Part shown: positions 5,613 through 21,515 of the stretch, in pieces
Position numbering within the stretch: position 1 is the stretch's first letter
Layout: each line of letters begins with the position of its first letter
Origin: Caldicellulosiruptor bescii DSM 6725
GTDB taxonomy: Bacteria > Bacillota > Thermoanaerobacteria > Caldicellulosiruptorales > Caldicellulosiruptoraceae
Length of the DNA: 64,000 bases
NCBI RefSeq assembly: GCF_000022325.1
Contig: NC_012034.1
Coordinates: 948,501-1,012,500 of the forward strand
Direction of reading: 5' to 3'
Notes under the pieces: model-generated
Seen by the model: the letters and a program-made list of their open reading frames with translations, nothing else
What the model was told of the DNA's origin: nothing
Database searches by the model: none
Position numbers and translations under genes: made by a program

Positions 5613-5680
5613 AGGTTTCTCCCCAAAACCGCCTGCTGGGGCTGGGAGACTTTGATGTGGCGGACTATAAATACCCCAGC
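5613..5680 (+). repeat. relic of IS607/TnpB element right end (omega-RNA 3' pseudoknot)
   Basis: This stretch matches the right end of the TnpB element at about 13630-13695. Both carry CCGCC-TG-GCTGGGG, then GGCGGACTA, then AAATACCCCAGCC. CCGCC (5629-5633) can pair with GGCGG (5659-5663) while GCTGGGG (5635-5641) pairs with CCCCAGC (5674-5680); the two helices interleave and form an H-type pseudoknot, and both are kept in both copies although the connecting loop differs. No transposase gene accompanies this copy. It separates uxuA from the GH2 gene. Confidence 0.75.
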
Positions 5681-5718
5681 CATCTTGAGCCGCTGCTTTT
5701 CTGAAGCGGCTCAAGATG
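5681..5718. repeat. 14-bp perfect inverted repeat next to the element relic
   Basis: CATCTTGAGCCGCT (5681-5694) is the exact reverse complement of AGCGGCTCAAGATG (5705-5718), with a 10-base loop. There is no T-run after it, so it is not an ordinary intrinsic terminator. It abuts the conserved element end at 5680, where the targeting guide of a TnpB omega-RNA would lie. The other copy of the element has no equivalent sequence there. Confidence 0.7.
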
Positions 5719-5735
5719 TTCTTGAGTTTCAAAAA

Positions 5736-11395: not shown

Positions 11396-12166
11396 TTGGC
11401 TGGTGACAAAATAACCTTAAGACAGCTTGAAACCCATCTTTTCAAGGCAGCTGATATACTCAGAGGTAAGATGGATGCCTCTGAGTATAAAGAATATATT
11501 TTTGGTATGCTTTTTCTAAAATATACTTCGGATGTTTTTGAAGAAAAAAGACAGGAGTTAAAAGATAGATTTAAAGCTATGGGATTTTCTGAAAAACAAA
11601 TACATGAACTATTAGAAGATCCAAGCTCTTATGGTGATGCCTTTTTTGTCCCTGAAAAGGCAAGATGGGAAAATATTTTAAAGTTAAAAGAAGATGTTGG
11701 AAATCAGCTAAATAAAGCTCTGAGCGCTTTAGAGGAAGCAAATCCAGAGCTTGATGGAGTTTTGAAACACATAGATTTTAACGCAGTAAAGGGAAAAACC
11801 CGACTCAAAGATCAGCAACTTATTGACCTTATTAACCATTTCAACAAGTATAAACTAACACCTTCAAACTTTGAATTTCCTGATCTGCTTGGTGCTGCTT
11901 ATGAGTATTTGCTAAAGGAATTTGCCGATTCAGCTGGTAAAAAAGGAGACAGACTTGCAAGGTTTGGATTTAAATATCTTAAGTTTTTCATGGAGAGCTT
12001 TGGGGTAGAACTGGTAGTGTTAAATGGCAGAGAAAATGAAGAAGATATAAACAGAGAACTGGCAGAGGACTTAATAGCGATAGTAACATCTTTTGCAGCG
12101 AGGATTTATGGACAAAGAGGTGCTAAAAGACATGGTAACAGTTCAGGCGAAGTTAGTGTTCGATAG
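11396..12166 (+). pseudogene. HsdM N-terminus fused in frame to the C-terminus of an IS607 serine recombinase
   Basis: A TTG start follows GGAGGGG. Residues 1-184 are the N-terminal helical domain of a type I DNA methyltransferase (HsdM_N), up to '[10 protein letters not shown]', which should lead into 'GEFYTP' and the SAM-binding domain. Instead residue 185 onward ('[11 protein letters not shown]', '[21 protein letters not shown]') is the C-terminus of an IS607-type TnpA. The TnpA catalytic serine and DNA-binding N-terminus are absent. The missing HsdM part resumes at 13733 as 'GEFYTPSHVKKL'; removing the intervening DNA at the shared GGAG restores the frame exactly. The chimera is an accident of insertion and should have neither activity. 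Confidence 0.82.
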
Positions 12167-13670
12167 AGAGGAAGACAAAAAGGCAGTATTAGATCTTATG
12201 AGAAGATGGTCCTCTTGTATGAGGTATGCATACAAGAGGTTACTGGAAGGGCATAAAAGGAATGAACTCAAAAGAGAACTGCAAGGAATTTTTAATCTTA
12301 ATTCCCGATACGTTGATGATGCAATAATGAAAGCAAACAGTGTTTTAAACTCATGCAAAGAAAGAGGAGAAAATCCTGAAAAGGTCATTTTTGGTGGCAG
12401 GCAACTTTTTGAAAAACTAAAGAGGCGGCACATAAACGGCAAGGTATATAGGAAACTTCAACGAGAGTGGCAGGAGAAAAGGAAGGGGAATCTGTACTCA
12501 AGAGGAGACAGGAGCAAAAAGGGGAATCTCAATACAAGGATTGAGATAGACGGGAACTTCACAAAACTCAGGATTAACGTAGGAAAAAGAGAGTACGTAT
12601 ATGCGACGATACAAGCTGGATGGAAGATGAAAGGTAAGACATACATGGATAGGAACCTACTGCTACAAGCAATAAGCAGCTTTAGTGGACCTTATTCTGT
12701 AGAACTGAAACTCAAAAACGGTGTAGTATATGCCTACTTCACCGTTGAAGAAGTTTTCCCCAAGCCTGCGATAACGAGAGCAAATGGAGTTATAGGGATA
12801 GACACTAACGCATATCCAAAGAATGTTGCATGGGCAGAAACAGATGAGTACGGACAGTTTCTGGGATATGGCAGAATACCACTTGAGAAGCTTGAGAGTG
12901 GAAGCTCAAGCAAGAGAGAGTATTACAGGTGGCAGTATGCACACATGATAGTACAAATGGCGAAAGAGAAGCAAAAAGCCATAGTGATTGAGAACCTTAG
13001 CATACAGGACAGGGGCAGAAGAGGCGACTTTTCAGGTAGAAAATCAAGACGGATAAGGCACTATTTTGGAAGCAGATTACTTTTGGAGAAGGTAAAACTT
13101 CTGGCAAAACGGGAAGGAGTAGAGGTTATAGAAGTAGACCCGGCGTATACTTCTGTGATAGGGATGTTGAAGTATGCACCGCAGTATATGGTGAGCAAGG
13201 ATATTGCGGCAGCGTATGTAATAGCGCGAAGAGGACTTGGTTTGAGAGAAAGGATACCGCACAATTATATGCTGCTTCTTAGTAGGCTTGATGTAAACAA
13301 CCTGGAAGAGCTAAAAGAGTATGTAAGGAAGGTAGTCAAGAACAAACATCTGAGGAAAAAACAACTCAAAGCGATAGATAGAGCGATAAAGTTTTTACAA
13401 AGCTCTGGGAGTGAGCCAGGGAGGCTATCCGTGCCTCTGGATGGAACAAGCGCGGGTAGTCGTGGCAAAAAACACAATCCCTGGCAAGTTCTTAGGGTAG
13501 CGGTGGTAACGCCACTCTCCCCTGACAGAGTCCTGCGTGATATGTCTGTCTTGAAATCGCTTTTGATTTCAGGGCAAGTGGGGAAGACCTGTAAGGGCGT
13601 AAGTTCCTGCTTCTTGGGGCAGGGGCTATGGCTTTCCCAAATACCGCCTGCTGGGGCTGGGAAAGCCTGA
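12108..13670 (+). CDS. tnpB: TnpB RNA-guided nuclease, IS607-associated, without zinc-ribbon cysteines
   Basis: The ATG at 12108 has GAGG just upstream and overlaps the tnpA fragment, as usual in IS607 elements; an in-frame start at 12093 is also open. The RuvC-like active site is complete: D232 in '[10 protein letters not shown]', E295 in 'IVIENLSI' and D365 in 'SKDIAAAYV'. Where most TnpBs have CxxC pairs between the last two motifs, this one has '[14 protein letters not shown]' and no cysteines. The final ~90 residues are low-complexity translation of the structured RNA-encoding DNA and may be untranslated or dispensable. Known TnpBs cut DNA using an omega-RNA from the element 3' end. Confidence 0.85.
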
Positions 13671-13695
13671 AAGGCGGACTACAAATACCCCAGCC
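13410..13695 (+). ncRNA. probable omega-RNA (HEARO-like) overlapping the tnpB 3' end
   Basis: This GC-rich stretch differs sharply from its surroundings and holds several strong helices: TGAAATC/GATTTCA (13552-13558/13565-13571), CCTGC/GCAGG near 13605-13623, and a pseudoknot in which CCGCC (13644-13648) pairs with GGCGG (13673-13677) while GCTGGGG (13650-13656) pairs with CCCCAGC (13688-13694). TnpB elements are known to encode their guide RNA here, ending at the element boundary. The 5' limit is my estimate. The pseudoknot recurs at 5613-5680. Confidence 0.65.
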
Positions 13696-13732
13696 GCCAA
13701 TACTGTGCAATTTTACACAGTTTGGTTGACCA

Positions 13733-15625
13733 GGAGAATTTTACACACCATCACATGTTAAAAAATTGATGGTAAGGTTAGTTAAGCCCTGTGAGGGCAT
13801 GTCAATTTACGACCCAACTGTGGGCTCTGGTGGTTTCTTGATTGAAGCGTTCCACTATGTTGAGGAACAAGGGCAAAACCCAAGAAATTTAGCACTATAT
13901 GGGCAAGAGCTTAATGGATTGACATGGTCTATATGCAAAATGAATATGATTTTGCACGGCATTAATGACGCGCACATAGAAAATGAAGATGTGTTGACAA
14001 CCCCTATGTTTTTGGAAAATGGATACATAAAAAGGTTTGACAGAATATTGGCCAATCCACCTTTTTCAGAAAACTATACCCGCGCAAATATGCAGTTTGA
14101 AGAAAGATTTAAATATGACTTTACTCCTGAGAATGGAAAAAAGGCAGACCTTATGTTTTTGCAGCACATGATTGCAAGCCTGAAAGATGACGGAGTAATG
14201 GCAACAGTTATGCCCCATGGAGTTTTGTTCAGAGGTGGGCAAGAAAAGGTTATAAGGGAAGGAATTGTAAGAGATGATCTAATTGAGGCAATAATAGGAC
14301 TGCCGCCTAAGCTTTTCTACAACACTGGAATACCAGCTTGTATTATTGTGATTAATAAAAACAAGCCAGAACATTTAAAAAATAAGATCTTGTTTATCAA
14401 CGCTGATAGAGAGTATGGAGAAGGTAGAAATCAGAATTTCTTGAGACCAGAGGACATAGAAAAAATAGTTACAGTGTTCGATGAAAAGAAAGAGATACCT
14501 AAATACTCCAGGTTGGTTGATATAAAGGAGATAGAAGAAAACGATTTTAATCTGAATATTAGGCGTTATGTGGACAATTCTCCAGATCCTGAAATCGAAG
14601 ATGTTCGTGCACAGCTTTTTGGTGGTGTACCGAAGAAAGAAGTATTGCTGTATGAAAAACAGTTGAGGAAATTTAACTTGAGCTATGATATTTTGCTGGC
14701 AGAGAAGAGCGAAAATTATTTGGAGTTTAAAAAGGACATTACTGACAGAAATCAAATTAGGGAACTGATTGATAATTGCACTGAAGTGAAAGTTACAATA
14801 GAAAAACACAAAGAAAAACTTTTGGATTGGTGGCAGCTTGTAAGGACTGAAATTGAACAGTTTTTTGGCAGAAATAATCTTTGGAAGTTTAGAAATGAAG
14901 CTTTGAAAAAGTTGAAAGAAAGTCTGCTGCCAATTGGAACATTTGACGAATTTAAAGTTGCGGGCATATTTGCAAATTGGTGGGAAGAGCTTGTTTATGA
15001 TTTCAAAAGTATAGTTTCTGCTGGTTGGAATAGGAATTTGGTTGAAAGAGAAAGGATTAAGGAAAAGTATTTTAAAGAAGATGTAGAAGAAATGGAAGAA
15101 CTTGAAAGCAGGCTTGCCGAAATTGAAGCAGATTTAAGTGAGCTTTTAGAAGAAGTTGAAGATTGGGATGAAGAACAGCAGGGAGATAAAACTGCAAGCA
15201 AGGTCAAAGAGTTTTTGAAGGACTTGGTTAAAGATTTAAGATCAAAAGACAGCGAGGCTTCAAGAAGAGAAGCAAAAAAATGGGAAGATTTGTTAGAAAA
15301 TATTGCTCAAAAAGAAAAGGAAATTAAAAAGGTGAGAAGTGAGATAAGCAGAAAGCAAAAGGAAATTGAAAATAAGATAGATGAAAAGATTGAATCTATT
15401 ACTGAAGAAGAAGCAAAAGAGCTATTGCTCGTAAAGTTCTTTGAATTAATTAGCAATCAACTTGAAAAGTACTTAAATGCAGAAAAGAAAGAACTGATAA
15501 AGATTTTTGAAAAGCTTTGGGATAAATATCATGTGTCTCTTGAACATCTTTTAAAGGAACGAGAGCAGGAGGTCAGTAGGTTAAATAAATTTTTGGAGGA
15601 ACTTGGATACTATGAGAGAGTCTAA
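13733..15625 (+). pseudogene. hsdM: HsdM, catalytic part (3' portion of the split gene)
   Basis: The frame resumes at 'GEFYTPSHVKKLMV' and continues to a normal stop. Counting from an internal TTG at 13766, the SAM-binding motif is 'YDPTVGSGG' (residues 15-23) and the catalytic motif 'ILANPPF' (residues 94-100), as in N6-adenine methyltransferases of type I systems. The C-terminal half is long and strongly coiled-coil (Glu/Lys-rich). With its N-terminal domain detached by the IS607 insertion, a functional HsdM would need reassembly of two polypeptides, and no clear ribosome site is seen for this half. Confidence 0.85.
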
Positions 15626-16913: not shown

Positions 16914-16966
16914 GTTGGCGATTTGTTGGCATTTAGTTGGCGATTGTGGCGATTATGGCGATTGTG
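16914..16966 (+). repeat. short TGGCGATT tandem repeat
   Basis: TGGCGATT occurs four times (16916, 16938, 16947, 16956), the last three exactly 9 bp apart. It lies between the AlbA/GHKL gene stop and hsdS. It may be a slippage-made simple repeat; no function is evident. Confidence 0.6.
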
Positions 16967-17054
16967 TAATGCTTATGTAGAAAAAATGTTTAATGAGGAT
17001 GCAAAACCATATCGAGGAGTGGCACTAATGTTTAAACAACAGGAAGAATTAAGA

Positions 17055-18331
17055 ATGGATAAAACAAAATGTATTCCTAAAAATTGGGGTGTTGTAAAGT
17101 TAGGAGAAAAATGTGAAATAACTATGGGACAATCTCCACCAAGTGAATCATACAATACGGAAGGAAAGGGAATGCCTTTTTTACAAGGCAAACAAGAATT
17201 TGGAAGCAATCATCCTGTAAATGTTAAGTATACCACAAAACCTTTAAAGATAGCTTTTGAGAATTCTATATTGATTTCAGTCAGGGCTCCAGTAGGTGAT
17301 GTTAATATTGCTGATAAGACTTACTGCATCGGGAGAGGATTAGCTTCATTAAGGGCAAAAAAAGGAATTATAGCTCTTTTCTTATATTATCTAATGGCTT
17401 TCCAAAAATCTGATGTTGAAGCAATAGGGGAGGGTTCAACTTTTCAGGCAATTACTAAATCTCAGATTTTCAATTTTAAAGTTCTTCTTCCTCCTCTCCC
17501 CGAACAACGCAAAATCGCTGAAATACTTGAGACAATTGATAATGCAATTGAGAAGACTGACGCCATTATAGAAAAATACAAACGCATAAAGCAAGGTTTG
17601 ATGCAAGATTTGCTTACTAAGGGAGTGGTATGTGAGGGTGAAGGTGAGAGTGAGAGGTGGAGGTTGAGAAATGAGAATATTGATAAATTCAAGGATTCAC
17701 CGCTTGGGAAGATTCCGGAAGAGTGGGAAGTGGTGGATGTCTACGGACATGTCAACTTAATTAATGGAGGAACTCCAAGCACAGAAGGCCCGAGTTTTGG
17801 AATGGAAGTATACCTTGGCTATCTGTAGAAGATTTTAATATAGGCAAAAGATGGGTTTTCTCAAGTTCAAAATACATAACTGAATTAGGTTTAAAGCAAA
17901 GTGCAACAAAGCTACTTAAAAAAGGTATGTTGATAATATCTGCACGTGGTACAGTAGGTGTGTTAGCACAACTTGGGGCGGATATGGCTTTCAATCAGTC
18001 ATGCTACGGCCTTGATGCAAAAGATAAAATGAAGCTCTCCAATGATTTCCTATATTATGCTTTAAAACATTTTATTACTTCATTTTTATCATTAGCATAT
18101 GAAAATGTATTTAATACAATTACGAGAGAAACCTTTAAAGAAATTTTAATTCCTCTTCCACCTCTTCCCGAACAACAACGCATAGCTTCAATTCTATCTC
18201 AAATAGATGAAGCCATAGAAAAAGAGCAAGCCTATAAGGAAAAGCTTGAAAGAATCAAAAAAGGCTTAATGGAAGATTTGCTAACAGGCAAAGTCAGGAT
18301 AAACCACCTTATTGAGGAGGAAGAAATATGA
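17055..18331 (+). pseudogene. hsdS: HsdS specificity subunit with a frameshift
   Basis: From the ATG at 17055 (AGGAAG upstream) the protein has TRD1, the conserved helix 'PPLPEQRKIAEILETID', then the start of TRD2 '(INGGTPSTEGP)'. Frame 3 ends at 17828, but another frame continues the expected sequence 'FWNGSIPWLSVEDF' from about 17792 through 'IISARGTVG' and the second conserved helix 'PLPEQQRIASILSQID' to 18331. The change fits loss of one base near 17789-17793, inside TRD2. HsdS normally sets target sequence for both methylation and cleavage; here TRD2 would be lost. A sequencing error cannot be excluded from one read. Confidence 0.85.
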
Positions 18332-18618
18332 ATAGTGATATACAAGTAATTCTACAAGAACGAAAAAATTATTTAGTGGAAAAGTTCGGAGTAATTGAAA
18401 TTGCTATCTTTGGCTCCTATGCAAGAGGCGAACAAAGAAAAGATAGTGATATAGATATCATTGTTGATTTTAAAGAGGGTTACAAAACATTCGATAATTA
18501 TATGAATTTGAAATTCTACCTTGAAGAACTTTTTGGTAAAAAGGTTGACCTTGTGATTAAATCAGCTATAAATCCACGTCTAAAGCCTTTCATAATGGAG
18601 GAAGCAGTATATGTCTAA
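18328..18618 (+). CDS. mntA: MntA-like nucleotidyltransferase antitoxin
   Basis: A 96-residue minimal nucleotidyltransferase. The GSX10DXD signature is intact: G29-S30, D41-x-D43, and a third acidic residue at D74 in 'KKVDLVI'. Its ATG overlaps the hsdS stop (ATGA) and has an AGGAGGAAG ribosome site; it overlaps the next gene by 8 bp. In characterised MntA-HepT pairs this enzyme AMPylates a tyrosine of the HEPN toxin and neutralises it. The pairing, spacing and motifs all agree with that role. Confidence 0.88.
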
Positions 18619-18958
18619 AAAGCGTATACTAAAAGTAATTCTTGAAGACATCGTTGAAGAGATTGACCGCATTAAAAAGTTTACACAAGGAATTGAAAAA
18701 TACAACAATTTTGTTGAAAATGAACTAGTTTTTTATGCAGTTTTAAAAGCTCTTGAAAATATTGGTGAAGCTGTTAAGCAGATTCCGGATGATAAAAGAG
18801 AACTTTATCCAATAGAATGGAAGAAAATCGCTGGTTTAAGGGATATTCTTATTCATGAGTATTTCGGGATAGATGCTGAAATAATCTGGGAGGTTATCAA
18901 AAAGAAGCTGCCGGAACTAGAAAAGGCAGTAAAATTCCTTCTTGAAAAGGAGAGTTAA
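18611..18958 (+). CDS. hepT: HepT-like HEPN RNase toxin
   Basis: A 115-residue HEPN (DUF86) protein, nearly all helical. The RX4HXY motif is R77-x4-H82-x-Y84 in '[10 protein letters not shown]', containing both the RNase residues and the tyrosine that MntA modifies in known pairs. It follows the antitoxin gene with an 8-bp overlap and is 2 bp from hsdR, so the module is embedded in the restriction operon. Unlike its hsd neighbours it shows no damage. Confidence 0.88.
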
Positions 18959-18960
18959 AA

Positions 18961-21515
18961 ATGTTTTACAAACTTGACGAAGAACATTATGTTGAAAATC
19001 CATTCCTCTTTCAGCTTCAAAGGCTTGGATGGAAGATTTACAGACAAAACAAAGATAACCCTGAGGATACAAAAGAAATAATATCGTTCACTTCTTCATT
19101 AGAAGCTGAATATGGTGAAAGCCAAAGATTAAGAGAAAGCTTTAAAGAAGTAATCCTTGAGGGAGTTTTAAGGGAGTCTTTAAAGAGAATAAACCCATGG
19201 ATAGAAGATGACCAAATAAGTGAAGTTATTCGAAGAATTACAACACCACAGTCAAACTCTCTTTTAGAGGCAAATAAAGAAATCCACGACTTGCTTTTAG
19301 AGAACACCTCAGTTTCTGAAAATAGAAAAACAGGAGAAAAAAGCCCAACTGTTAAGTTTATTGATTTTAAAAATCCGGACAATAATTCATTCATTGCTAT
19401 ATCACAGTTTAAAATGAATATAACGGGGACTGAAAAACATATTGTTCCCGATATAGTTCTTTTTGTAAATGGTTTGCCTCTTGTGGTGGTTGAATGTAAA
19501 TCTCCAGCAGTTGCTGACCCAATTTCTGAAGCAATTACTCAGCTTATGCGCTATTGTAACAGACGTGGCGTAATTGAGGGAAATGAAAAGCTTTTCTGGT
19601 ACAACCTATTTGTGGTAGCTACATGCAATCAGGTCGCAAAATATGGCACAATAACCTCAGAGTATGAGCACTTTGTTGAGTGGAAAGACCCTTATCCTTT
19701 TTCGCTGTCAGACGTAAATCCAGATGGAAATGTAACAAGCCAGCAAGTTTTGATTCATGGGATGCTTTCAAAAGAAAACCTTCTTGATCTGCTTCACACA
19801 TTCACCATCTTTAAAGAAGATCCAAAGAGCAAGATGATAAAGGTTGTTGCAAGATATCAGCAATTTAGAGCAGTAAAGAAGATGATAAAAAGGCTAAAAG
19901 AAGGCAAAACACCAACCGAAAGAGGAGGAATTGTTTGGCATACGCAAGGCTCCGGTAAATCTTTGACAATGATGTTTATGGTTCGAAAGCTTTATCACAA
20001 TCCTGAGTTTGGAAACTACAAAGTTGTTTTTGTCACAGATAGAAAAGATCTTGAAAAGCAGTTAAATGAAACATCAAGAAGTGTTGGATTTACTGTTAAG
20101 TTAGCAAGAAGCATTCAGGAACTTAAAGAACTTTTAAAAACTGACACACCCGAACTTGTCATGGCTATGGTTCATAAATTTCAAGAGAGGGAATTAAAAG
20201 GAGAAATTCCTGTCCTTAATACATCACCTAATATTCTAATATGGATGAAAATGGTAACAGTGGCAATGTTGGTATTTTGGTTGTTCAAAATATGCTAATA
20301 ACTGGTTTTGATGCACCTGTGGAGCAGGTTATGTATCTTGATAATGTGATTAAGGGTCATAACTTACTACAAGCTATTGCAAGGGTGAATAGAGTATACA
20401 AAAATAAGTCTTGTGGTTTTGTTATAGATTATGTAGGTGTTTTAAAACATTTAAAAGAGGCGCTGGCTATTTACGCTGATGAAGATATTGAGGAAATTTC
20501 AGAGGTTGTAAAGAACAAAGCAAAAAGCATTGATGAGCTAAAGTATGTTCACAATCTTATTGAAGAGTTTTTTGAAAAATATGGCATTAGAAATTGGCGC
20601 CAGAATGTAGATGAATGCATTGACATTCTTGTTGATGAGCAGGTCAGAAATGAATTTATAGCTCTTGTGAGATGGTTTAACCGCTGTATGGACGAGGTTC
20701 TTCCTGACCCTGCAGCACTAAAATACCTTACTGACTTGAAAATTCTTGCCTTCATAAAAGAATCCGCTCGAAATAGATACCGAGATGACAAGCTGAGTAT
20801 AAAAGATGCAAGCAATAAAATAAGAGAAATTGTGGAAGAATACCTGATCTTTCAGGGAATAGATCCCAAAATACCACCTACTCCACTTTTTGAAGACAAA
20901 TTCCTAGAAAAACTTCACAAAAAATCAAGCAAAGCAAAAGCTCAAGAGCTTCAGCATGCGATAATTGAGTATATTGATGAGCATTGGGAAGAAGATCCAG
21001 AACTTTATGAGAGGTTTTCAGATAGACTAAAGAGGTTACTTCAAGAATACAAAGAAAATGGGGATGCTCAATGTATTGAATTAGAAAAATTAAGAGAAGA
21101 GTTGAAAAAAGGGAGAGAAGCAGAACAGACTTATGGGCTTGACCCTAAGAAAGAAATGCCGTTTTTTGGGTTACTAAAAGACCAAATATTTGGGAAAAAA
21201 CCTGTAAGTGAACTTTCTGAGAGGGAAATAGATTTTCTTGTTAGCACAACAAGAGATTTGGTGGAATTAATAAGCAGAGAGGTTCAAGCGGTTGATTTTT
21301 GGGAAAGTGCAACAAAACAAAGAAAGTTGAAATCCTATATAATTTCGCACTTGCTTGAAAAAATATCACCTGCTATGTATGAAAACAACCATGATGGAGT
21401 TAAAACAGAAACTGCAGTATATATCTCTAATTCTTCCGGTCAAAATATATTCAACAAGAGAAATGAAATTGCTCAAAGACTTTTAGAACTTGCTTATCAT
21501 CATTTTAGGAAGTGA
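18961..21515 (+). pseudogene. hsdR: HsdR restriction subunit with internal deletion and frameshift
   Basis: The N-terminal part has the nuclease core 'VPDIVLFVNGLPLVVVECKSP' (D...ExK) and helicase motif I 'TQGSGKS' (residues 328-334). After 'TSPNILI' the frame breaks at about 20238. The next frame, from 20241 ('MDENGNSGNVGILVV'), jumps straight to the late helicase region 'LITGFDAP' and then the C-terminal helical domain. The DEAH box and motifs III-IV are missing, an estimated ~200 codons. Together about 850 codons remain of a protein usually near 1000 or more. It cannot translocate DNA as it stands. Confidence 0.87.

What the first reader, a model, noticed from the sequence alone, without database searches (positions are those of the whole stretch)
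11396..12166. Clean in-frame chimera of HsdM and the C-terminus of an IS607 recombinase
The joint falls exactly where excision at a shared GGAG rebuilds hsdM ('GKKG' + 'EFYTP'). Yet the element's left end lies inside tnpA, so it lacks ~130 codons. Either a deletion stopped exactly at the insertion point, or a shortened element with a left end inside tnpA moved by itself or in trans. GG on both sides fits IS607 targeting.
Basis: partly seen in the sequence, partly recalled or inferred. Interest (0 to 1): 0.6.

Follow-up and report, generated by a model that had tools for sequence, protein, structure and literature searches.

The report
Truncated mobile element inside broken hsdM
A common type of jumping gene landed in a bacterial DNA-methylase gene and then lost its left end in a 448-base deletion, leaving an accidental fused reading frame; the short form did not jump by itself, and this is ordinary gene decay apart from one odd detail: the deletion stops exactly at the insertion point.

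Summary
The 256-codon ORF is real: 184 HsdM codons plus the last 72 codons of an IS607-type TnpA, followed by an intact tnpB, a guide-RNA region and the element's right end. The genome is Caldicellulosiruptor bescii-like. Six relatives carry uninterrupted hsdM reading AAAAAAGGAGGAGAATTTT (GKKGGEFYTP); splicing the window's joints gives GKKGEFYTP, one codon short. The full element ends in an AGG exchange core (left AGG-TCACAACAG, right TTGACC-AGG). No other copy in 12 genomes begins inside tnpA: full-length copies carry tnpA upstream, and mobile tnpA-deleted forms keep the left end. So a full element inserted at a Shine-Dalgarno-like GGAGG, and a 448-bp deletion then removed the left end, 130 tnpA codons and 1-3 bases of hsdM. 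What remains odd is that the deletion's hsdM-side end lies inside the 3-bp core that TnpA cuts, with 2-bp microhomology. A failed TnpA reaction would explain this, but it is one case, and another left-end-less copy (near gyrA) has its breakpoint 333 bp away. The surrounding type I restriction locus is also broken in hsdS and hsdR.

The parts
11396..11947 (+). 5' part of hsdM (codons 1-184, HsdM_N domain)
   Evidence: Pfam HsdM_N E 6.2e-34; 98-100% identical to hsdM of relatives
11946..11949 (+). left joint: breakpoint after 11946, 11947 or 11948 (AG microhomology), inside the AGG exchange core; 448 bp deleted relative to a full element (452 relative to copy L029)
11948..12166 (+). 3' fragment of IS607-type tnpA (codons 131-202 and stop), in frame with hsdM
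   Evidence: NF033518 partial match; full-length copy L030 has a 202-aa TnpA
12108..13670 (+). tnpB, intact reading frame overlapping the tnpA end; RuvC-like D/E/D motifs (GIDTN, IENL, SKD); no CxxC zinc ribbon
   Evidence: TIGR01765 E 1e-23, TIGR01766 E 7.6e-15; intact in all five near-identical copies
13628..13730 (+). right-end guide-RNA scaffold (pseudoknot plus terminal hairpin)
   Evidence: covariance-model hit G000:962128-962230; pair counts; no Rfam match
13732..13734 (+). AGG core of the right end (TTGACCAGG)
   Evidence: identical right ends in the genus; empty versus occupied site near gyrA
13735..13754 (+). expected guide segment = hsdM flank AGAATTTTACACACCATCAC; in intact relatives it is preceded by GGAGG, a TAM-like sequence
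   Evidence: sequence; intact alleles; published IS607 TnpB TAM AGGAG (PMC11061315); inference
13735..15625 (+). 3' part of hsdM (N6_Mtase domain), cut off from its start
   Evidence: Pfam N6_Mtase E 6.7e-90; relatives G002 and G009 have one uninterrupted frame of 821 codons
16923..18331 (+). hsdS split into two overlapping frames (frameshift)
   Evidence: two Methylase_S fragments; one 458-codon frame in G002
18961..21515 (+). hsdR with a 655-bp deletion at 20241/20242, no microhomology

Best explanation
A full-length IS607-type element (about 2.24 kb, tnpA + tnpB + guide RNA) inserted into hsdM at an AGG inside the Shine-Dalgarno-like run AAAAAAGGAGG. Later a single deletion of about 448 bp, joined at a 2-bp AG microhomology, removed the left end, 130 tnpA codons and 1-3 bases of hsdM. 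That stranded the element, because TnpA acts on both ends, and left an in-frame HsdM-TnpA fusion by chance (1 in 3). The copy keeps an intact tnpB and right-end guide RNA. tnpB is probably still translated, because its start lies inside the tnpA remnant. The fusion and the split hsdM are pseudogenes in a decaying type I restriction locus. Shown: insertion site, element ends, missing bases, deletion size, absence of other copies starting there, broken hsdS and hsdR. Inferred: order of events, end joining as the cause of the deletion, loss of mobility, tnpB expression.
For: Six relatives with GGAGGAG at the site. Ends defined on an occupied/empty pair near gyrA: GGGAGG-AAAAATT empty, GGGAGG-TCACAAC...TTGACCAGG-AAAAATT occupied. 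All other copies reaching this position run on into upstream tnpA, and shortened forms keep the left end. The closest sibling, L028, differs at 2 of 1743 aligned positions and has both ends. The deletion was reproduced from a full copy, with three equivalent breakpoints. Another deletion in the same operon: 655 bp in hsdR without microhomology. IS607 ends are bound by TnpA over 8-78 bp of the left end, and GG is exchanged without target duplication (PMC6188088).
Against: A random deletion would rarely end inside the 3-bp core (roughly 3 in several hundred), so plain chance is uncomfortable. No strain with the undeleted insertion was available. The GGA codon could in principle have been lost before insertion, though six of six relatives have it.
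Confidence: 0.9

Rival explanations
1. The truncation is the scar of a failed TnpA reaction: the recombinase cut at the left core (A^GG), during excision or integration, did not re-join, the element end was chewed back about 446 bases, and the end was joined to the untouched hsdM side by a 1-2 base overlap. (A sub-case of the best explanation: it concerns only the cause of the deletion.)
For: The hsdM-side breakpoint lies inside the AGG core, one option being exactly A|GG. Published work proposes that IS607 ends join sequentially at one GG (PMC6188088). The right end is intact. No Ku gene was found, so joining would be by a Ku-independent route.
Against: One case only. The other left-end-less copy that can be judged (near gyrA, L034) has its breakpoint 333 bp outside the insertion point. 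L033/L061 and the G008 copy cannot be judged.
Confidence: 0.3
2. The truncation is an interrupted repair event: TnpA excised the element, TnpB cut the restored hsdM site, and copying the element back from a sister chromosome stopped inside tnpA.
For: Right end intact and left part missing fits copying from the right side. The intact hsdM site carries a TAM-like GGAGG before the guide match.
Against: IS607 TnpBs cut 16-22 nt beyond the TAM (PMC11061315), so the left broken end should carry extra hsdM bases; these would all have to be trimmed back to the core. A single case.
Confidence: 0.08
3. A shortened element with its left end inside tnpA transposed into hsdM by itself or in trans.
For: tnpA-deleted relatives appear to move in trans: L053/L062 share one internal deletion at two sites, as do L036/L054/L056 in three genomes, and L028/L031 share a 34-bp tnpA deletion.
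Against: All of those keep the left end. No copy starts at this tnpA position. hsdM lost bases at the joint, which IS607 exchange does not do. There is no AGG at the element side of the joint.
Confidence: 0.02
4. The in-frame HsdM-TnpA fusion is a functional, selected protein, for example one keeping tnpB translationally coupled to hsdM.
For: The frame is kept through to the tnpA stop, which lies 59 bases past the tnpB start. tnpB is intact in five of five near-identical copies while tnpA is intact in one.
Against: In-frame fusion has a 1-in-3 chance. The catalytic domains of both parents are lost or cut. hsdS and hsdR are also broken.
Confidence: 0.05

Closest known systems
IS607-family elements (IS607, IS1535, ISC1926; PMC6188088)
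   Same: Serine-recombinase TnpA with N-terminal MerR-like domain, overlapping tnpB, exchange at GG without target duplication
   Different: The window copy lacks the left end and most of tnpA; the sites are Shine-Dalgarno-like AGG before start codons rather than any GG
RAGATH-18-guided IS607 TnpBs (ISFba1; PMC11061315)
   Same: IS607 TnpB with a structured right-end RNA and an AG-rich TAM (AGGAG) resembling the GGAGG at the insertion site here
   Different: No Rfam match for the RNA; no sequence match to a solved TnpB; the zinc ribbon is missing
Type I restriction-modification hsdM/hsdS/hsdR
   Same: The order and domains are those of a type I locus
   Different: hsdM, hsdS and hsdR are all broken here; intact in G002 and G009

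Membership tests
IS607 family | serine-recombinase TnpA with N-terminal DNA-binding domain | tested here: met
   Full copy L030: NF033518 E 3e-68, Resolvase and MerR domains; the window copy keeps only the last 72 residues
IS607 family | exchange at a GG shared by both ends and target, no duplication | tested here: met
   Occupied and empty alleles near gyrA share AGG only
IS607 family | both ends present (mobile element) | tested here: not met
   Positions 1-449 of the full element are absent from the window copy
TnpB RNA-guided nucleases | RuvC catalytic D/E/D and right-end guide RNA | tested here: met
   GIDTN, IENL and SKD motifs intact; covarying RNA fold
TnpB RNA-guided nucleases | guided cleavage activity | not testable with these tools
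   needs an assay
RAGATH-18 reRNA (Rfam) | match to the family model | tested here: not met
   no match up to E 5 on 13380-13800
Type I HsdM | HsdM_N and N6_Mtase domains in one protein | tested here: not met
   the domains lie in two frames separated by the element

The most novel reading that the evidence does not exclude
The joint is the scar of a half-finished IS607 TnpA reaction: a left-end cut at A^GG that was repaired by end joining. If recurrent, this would be an unrecognised way in which IS607/TnpB elements lose their transposase end and become stranded tnpB-plus-guide units.
Probability: 0.3. Interest if true: 0.4.

Novelty: new member of a known kind. Interest (0 to 1): 0.22.

Why it matters
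It also shows how an IS607 element becomes a stranded tnpB with a guide against the intact form of the gene it broke. If the breakpoint position reflects TnpA cleavage, such scars could be used to study IS607 strand exchange, whose mechanism is still debated.

Tried and rejected
Rejected: the tnpA-internal position as a transposon end (no second copy). Rejected: exact rebuilding of hsdM (relatives have one more codon). Rejected: recombination of TnpA at a GG inside tnpA (the tnpA side reads TATCCAGACAG, with no GG). Tested for recurrence of core-anchored truncations: L034 no (333 bp away), L033/L061 and the G008 copy not judgeable. Exact joint in other species' genomes: none. Laying the whole genome in the Python box was not available. 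No paper was found on Caldicellulosiruptor IS607 elements.

Full report
The object. The window lies in a 2.93-Mb genome of the genus Caldicellulosiruptor. The ORF at 11396-12166 is HsdM codons 1-184 followed in frame by the last 72 codons of an IS607-type TnpA. tnpB (12108-13670), a guide-RNA scaffold (13628-13730) and the right end (TTGACCAGG, ending at 13734) follow; hsdM then resumes.

Element ends. Five near-identical copies exist in this genome (the hsdM copy, L028-L031), plus a sixth more distant full-length copy (L032) and two right-end remnants. A full copy (L030) is 2237 bp: AGG-TCACAACAGTTG...TTGACC-AGG. The exchange core was fixed by an occupied/empty pair near gyrA: empty AAAGGGAGG-AAAAATT (G006), occupied AAAGGGAGG-TCACAACAG...TTGACCAGG-AAAAATT (G005). 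This agrees with GG exchange without target duplication in IS607 (PMC6188088).

hsdM before insertion. In six other genomes the sequences left and right of the element are contiguous and read AAAAAAGGAGGAGAATTTTACAC, GKKGGEFYTP; the rest of hsdM is intact in G002 and G009. The insertion therefore used the second AGG.

The left joint. Starting from a full copy inserted at AGG, a single deletion gives the observed sequence with three equivalent breakpoints: left side retained to GG, GGA or GGAG; right side from AGACAG, GACAG or ACAG of tnpA. It is 452 bp measured on copy L029, which carries small insertions, and 448 bp on L030 (counted from the alignment). The hsdM-side breakpoint is inside the AGG core.

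Did a short element move? Every other copy in 12 genomes that contains this position continues upstream into tnpA. Shortened forms that seem to have moved, because they occur at several unrelated sites with the same internal deletion, all keep the left end: L053/L062; L036, L054 and L056 in three genomes; L055 and L057-L060. L028 and L031 share a 34-bp tnpA deletion at different sites and also keep both ends; gene conversion between copies is an alternative there. So trans-mobilisation is plausible in this genus, but the hsdM copy is not an example. TnpA binds 8-78 bp inside the left end in a relative (PMC6188088), and that part is absent here.

Why does the deletion stop at the core? Chance placement within 3 bp is unlikely but is judged after the fact. 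The only other judgeable left-end-less copy, near gyrA in this genome, lost 333 bp of flank as well. An hsdR deletion of 655 bp in the same operon shows that deletions without microhomology happen here. A failed TnpA cut is a fair but unproven explanation. Ku was not found.

Context. hsdS is frameshifted and hsdR deleted here; G004 and G006 have also lost parts of this locus, while G002 and G009 keep it intact. In the five near-identical C. bescii copies tnpB is intact in all and tnpA in one.

Target preference. 26 of 33 insertions in the genus have a start codon with an ORF of at least 50 codons 4-13 nt after the right-end AGG (20 with ATG), against 12% (5% ATG) of AGG sites in the window and 30% (20% ATG) of GGAGG sites. 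Selection against insertions within genes may contribute, and a few of the 33 share ancestry. The published TAM of related IS607 TnpBs is AGGAG (PMC11061315). The hsdM site AAAAAAGGAGG looks like a Shine-Dalgarno sequence inside a gene.

Noticed in passing
window 5613-5720 (G000:C1:954113-954220): Stand-alone copy of the IS607-TnpB guide-RNA fold, with no tnpB beside it, in the 5' leader of a glycoside hydrolase family 2 gene. Found in the corresponding region in 10 genomes of the genus; helices covary across stand-alone and element copies (8 pairs with changes on both sides, 93% of cells paired against 38-52% when slid). No Rfam match above chance. It may be a domesticated guide-RNA-derived leader element.
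   Followed up: partly
L141 (G004:C1:693375-693481), L144 (G001:C1:230113-230218): Two more copies of the same RNA fold that look stand-alone, just upstream of possible start codons.
   Followed up: no
genus-wide, e.g. L028-L030, L032, L054: These IS607-type elements sit in Shine-Dalgarno sequences 4-13 nt before start codons (26 of 33), and their right end AGG re-supplies an SD-like sequence to the downstream gene.
   Followed up: partly
window 12108-13670: This TnpB has RuvC-like motifs but no CxxC zinc ribbon and no Pfam match above cut-off.
   Followed up: no
window 16923-21515: hsdS is frameshifted and hsdR carries a 655-bp deletion; the type I restriction locus looks inactive here, damaged in G004 and G006, intact in G002 and G009.
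   Followed up: partly
G000 copies L028-L031 and the window copy: tnpB is intact in all five near-identical copies while tnpA is intact in only one.
   Followed up: partly
G000:C1:6341-6456 (L034): A 116-bp right-end remnant upstream of a gyrA-like gene; the deletion also removed 333 bp of flanking sequence present in relatives.
   Followed up: yes
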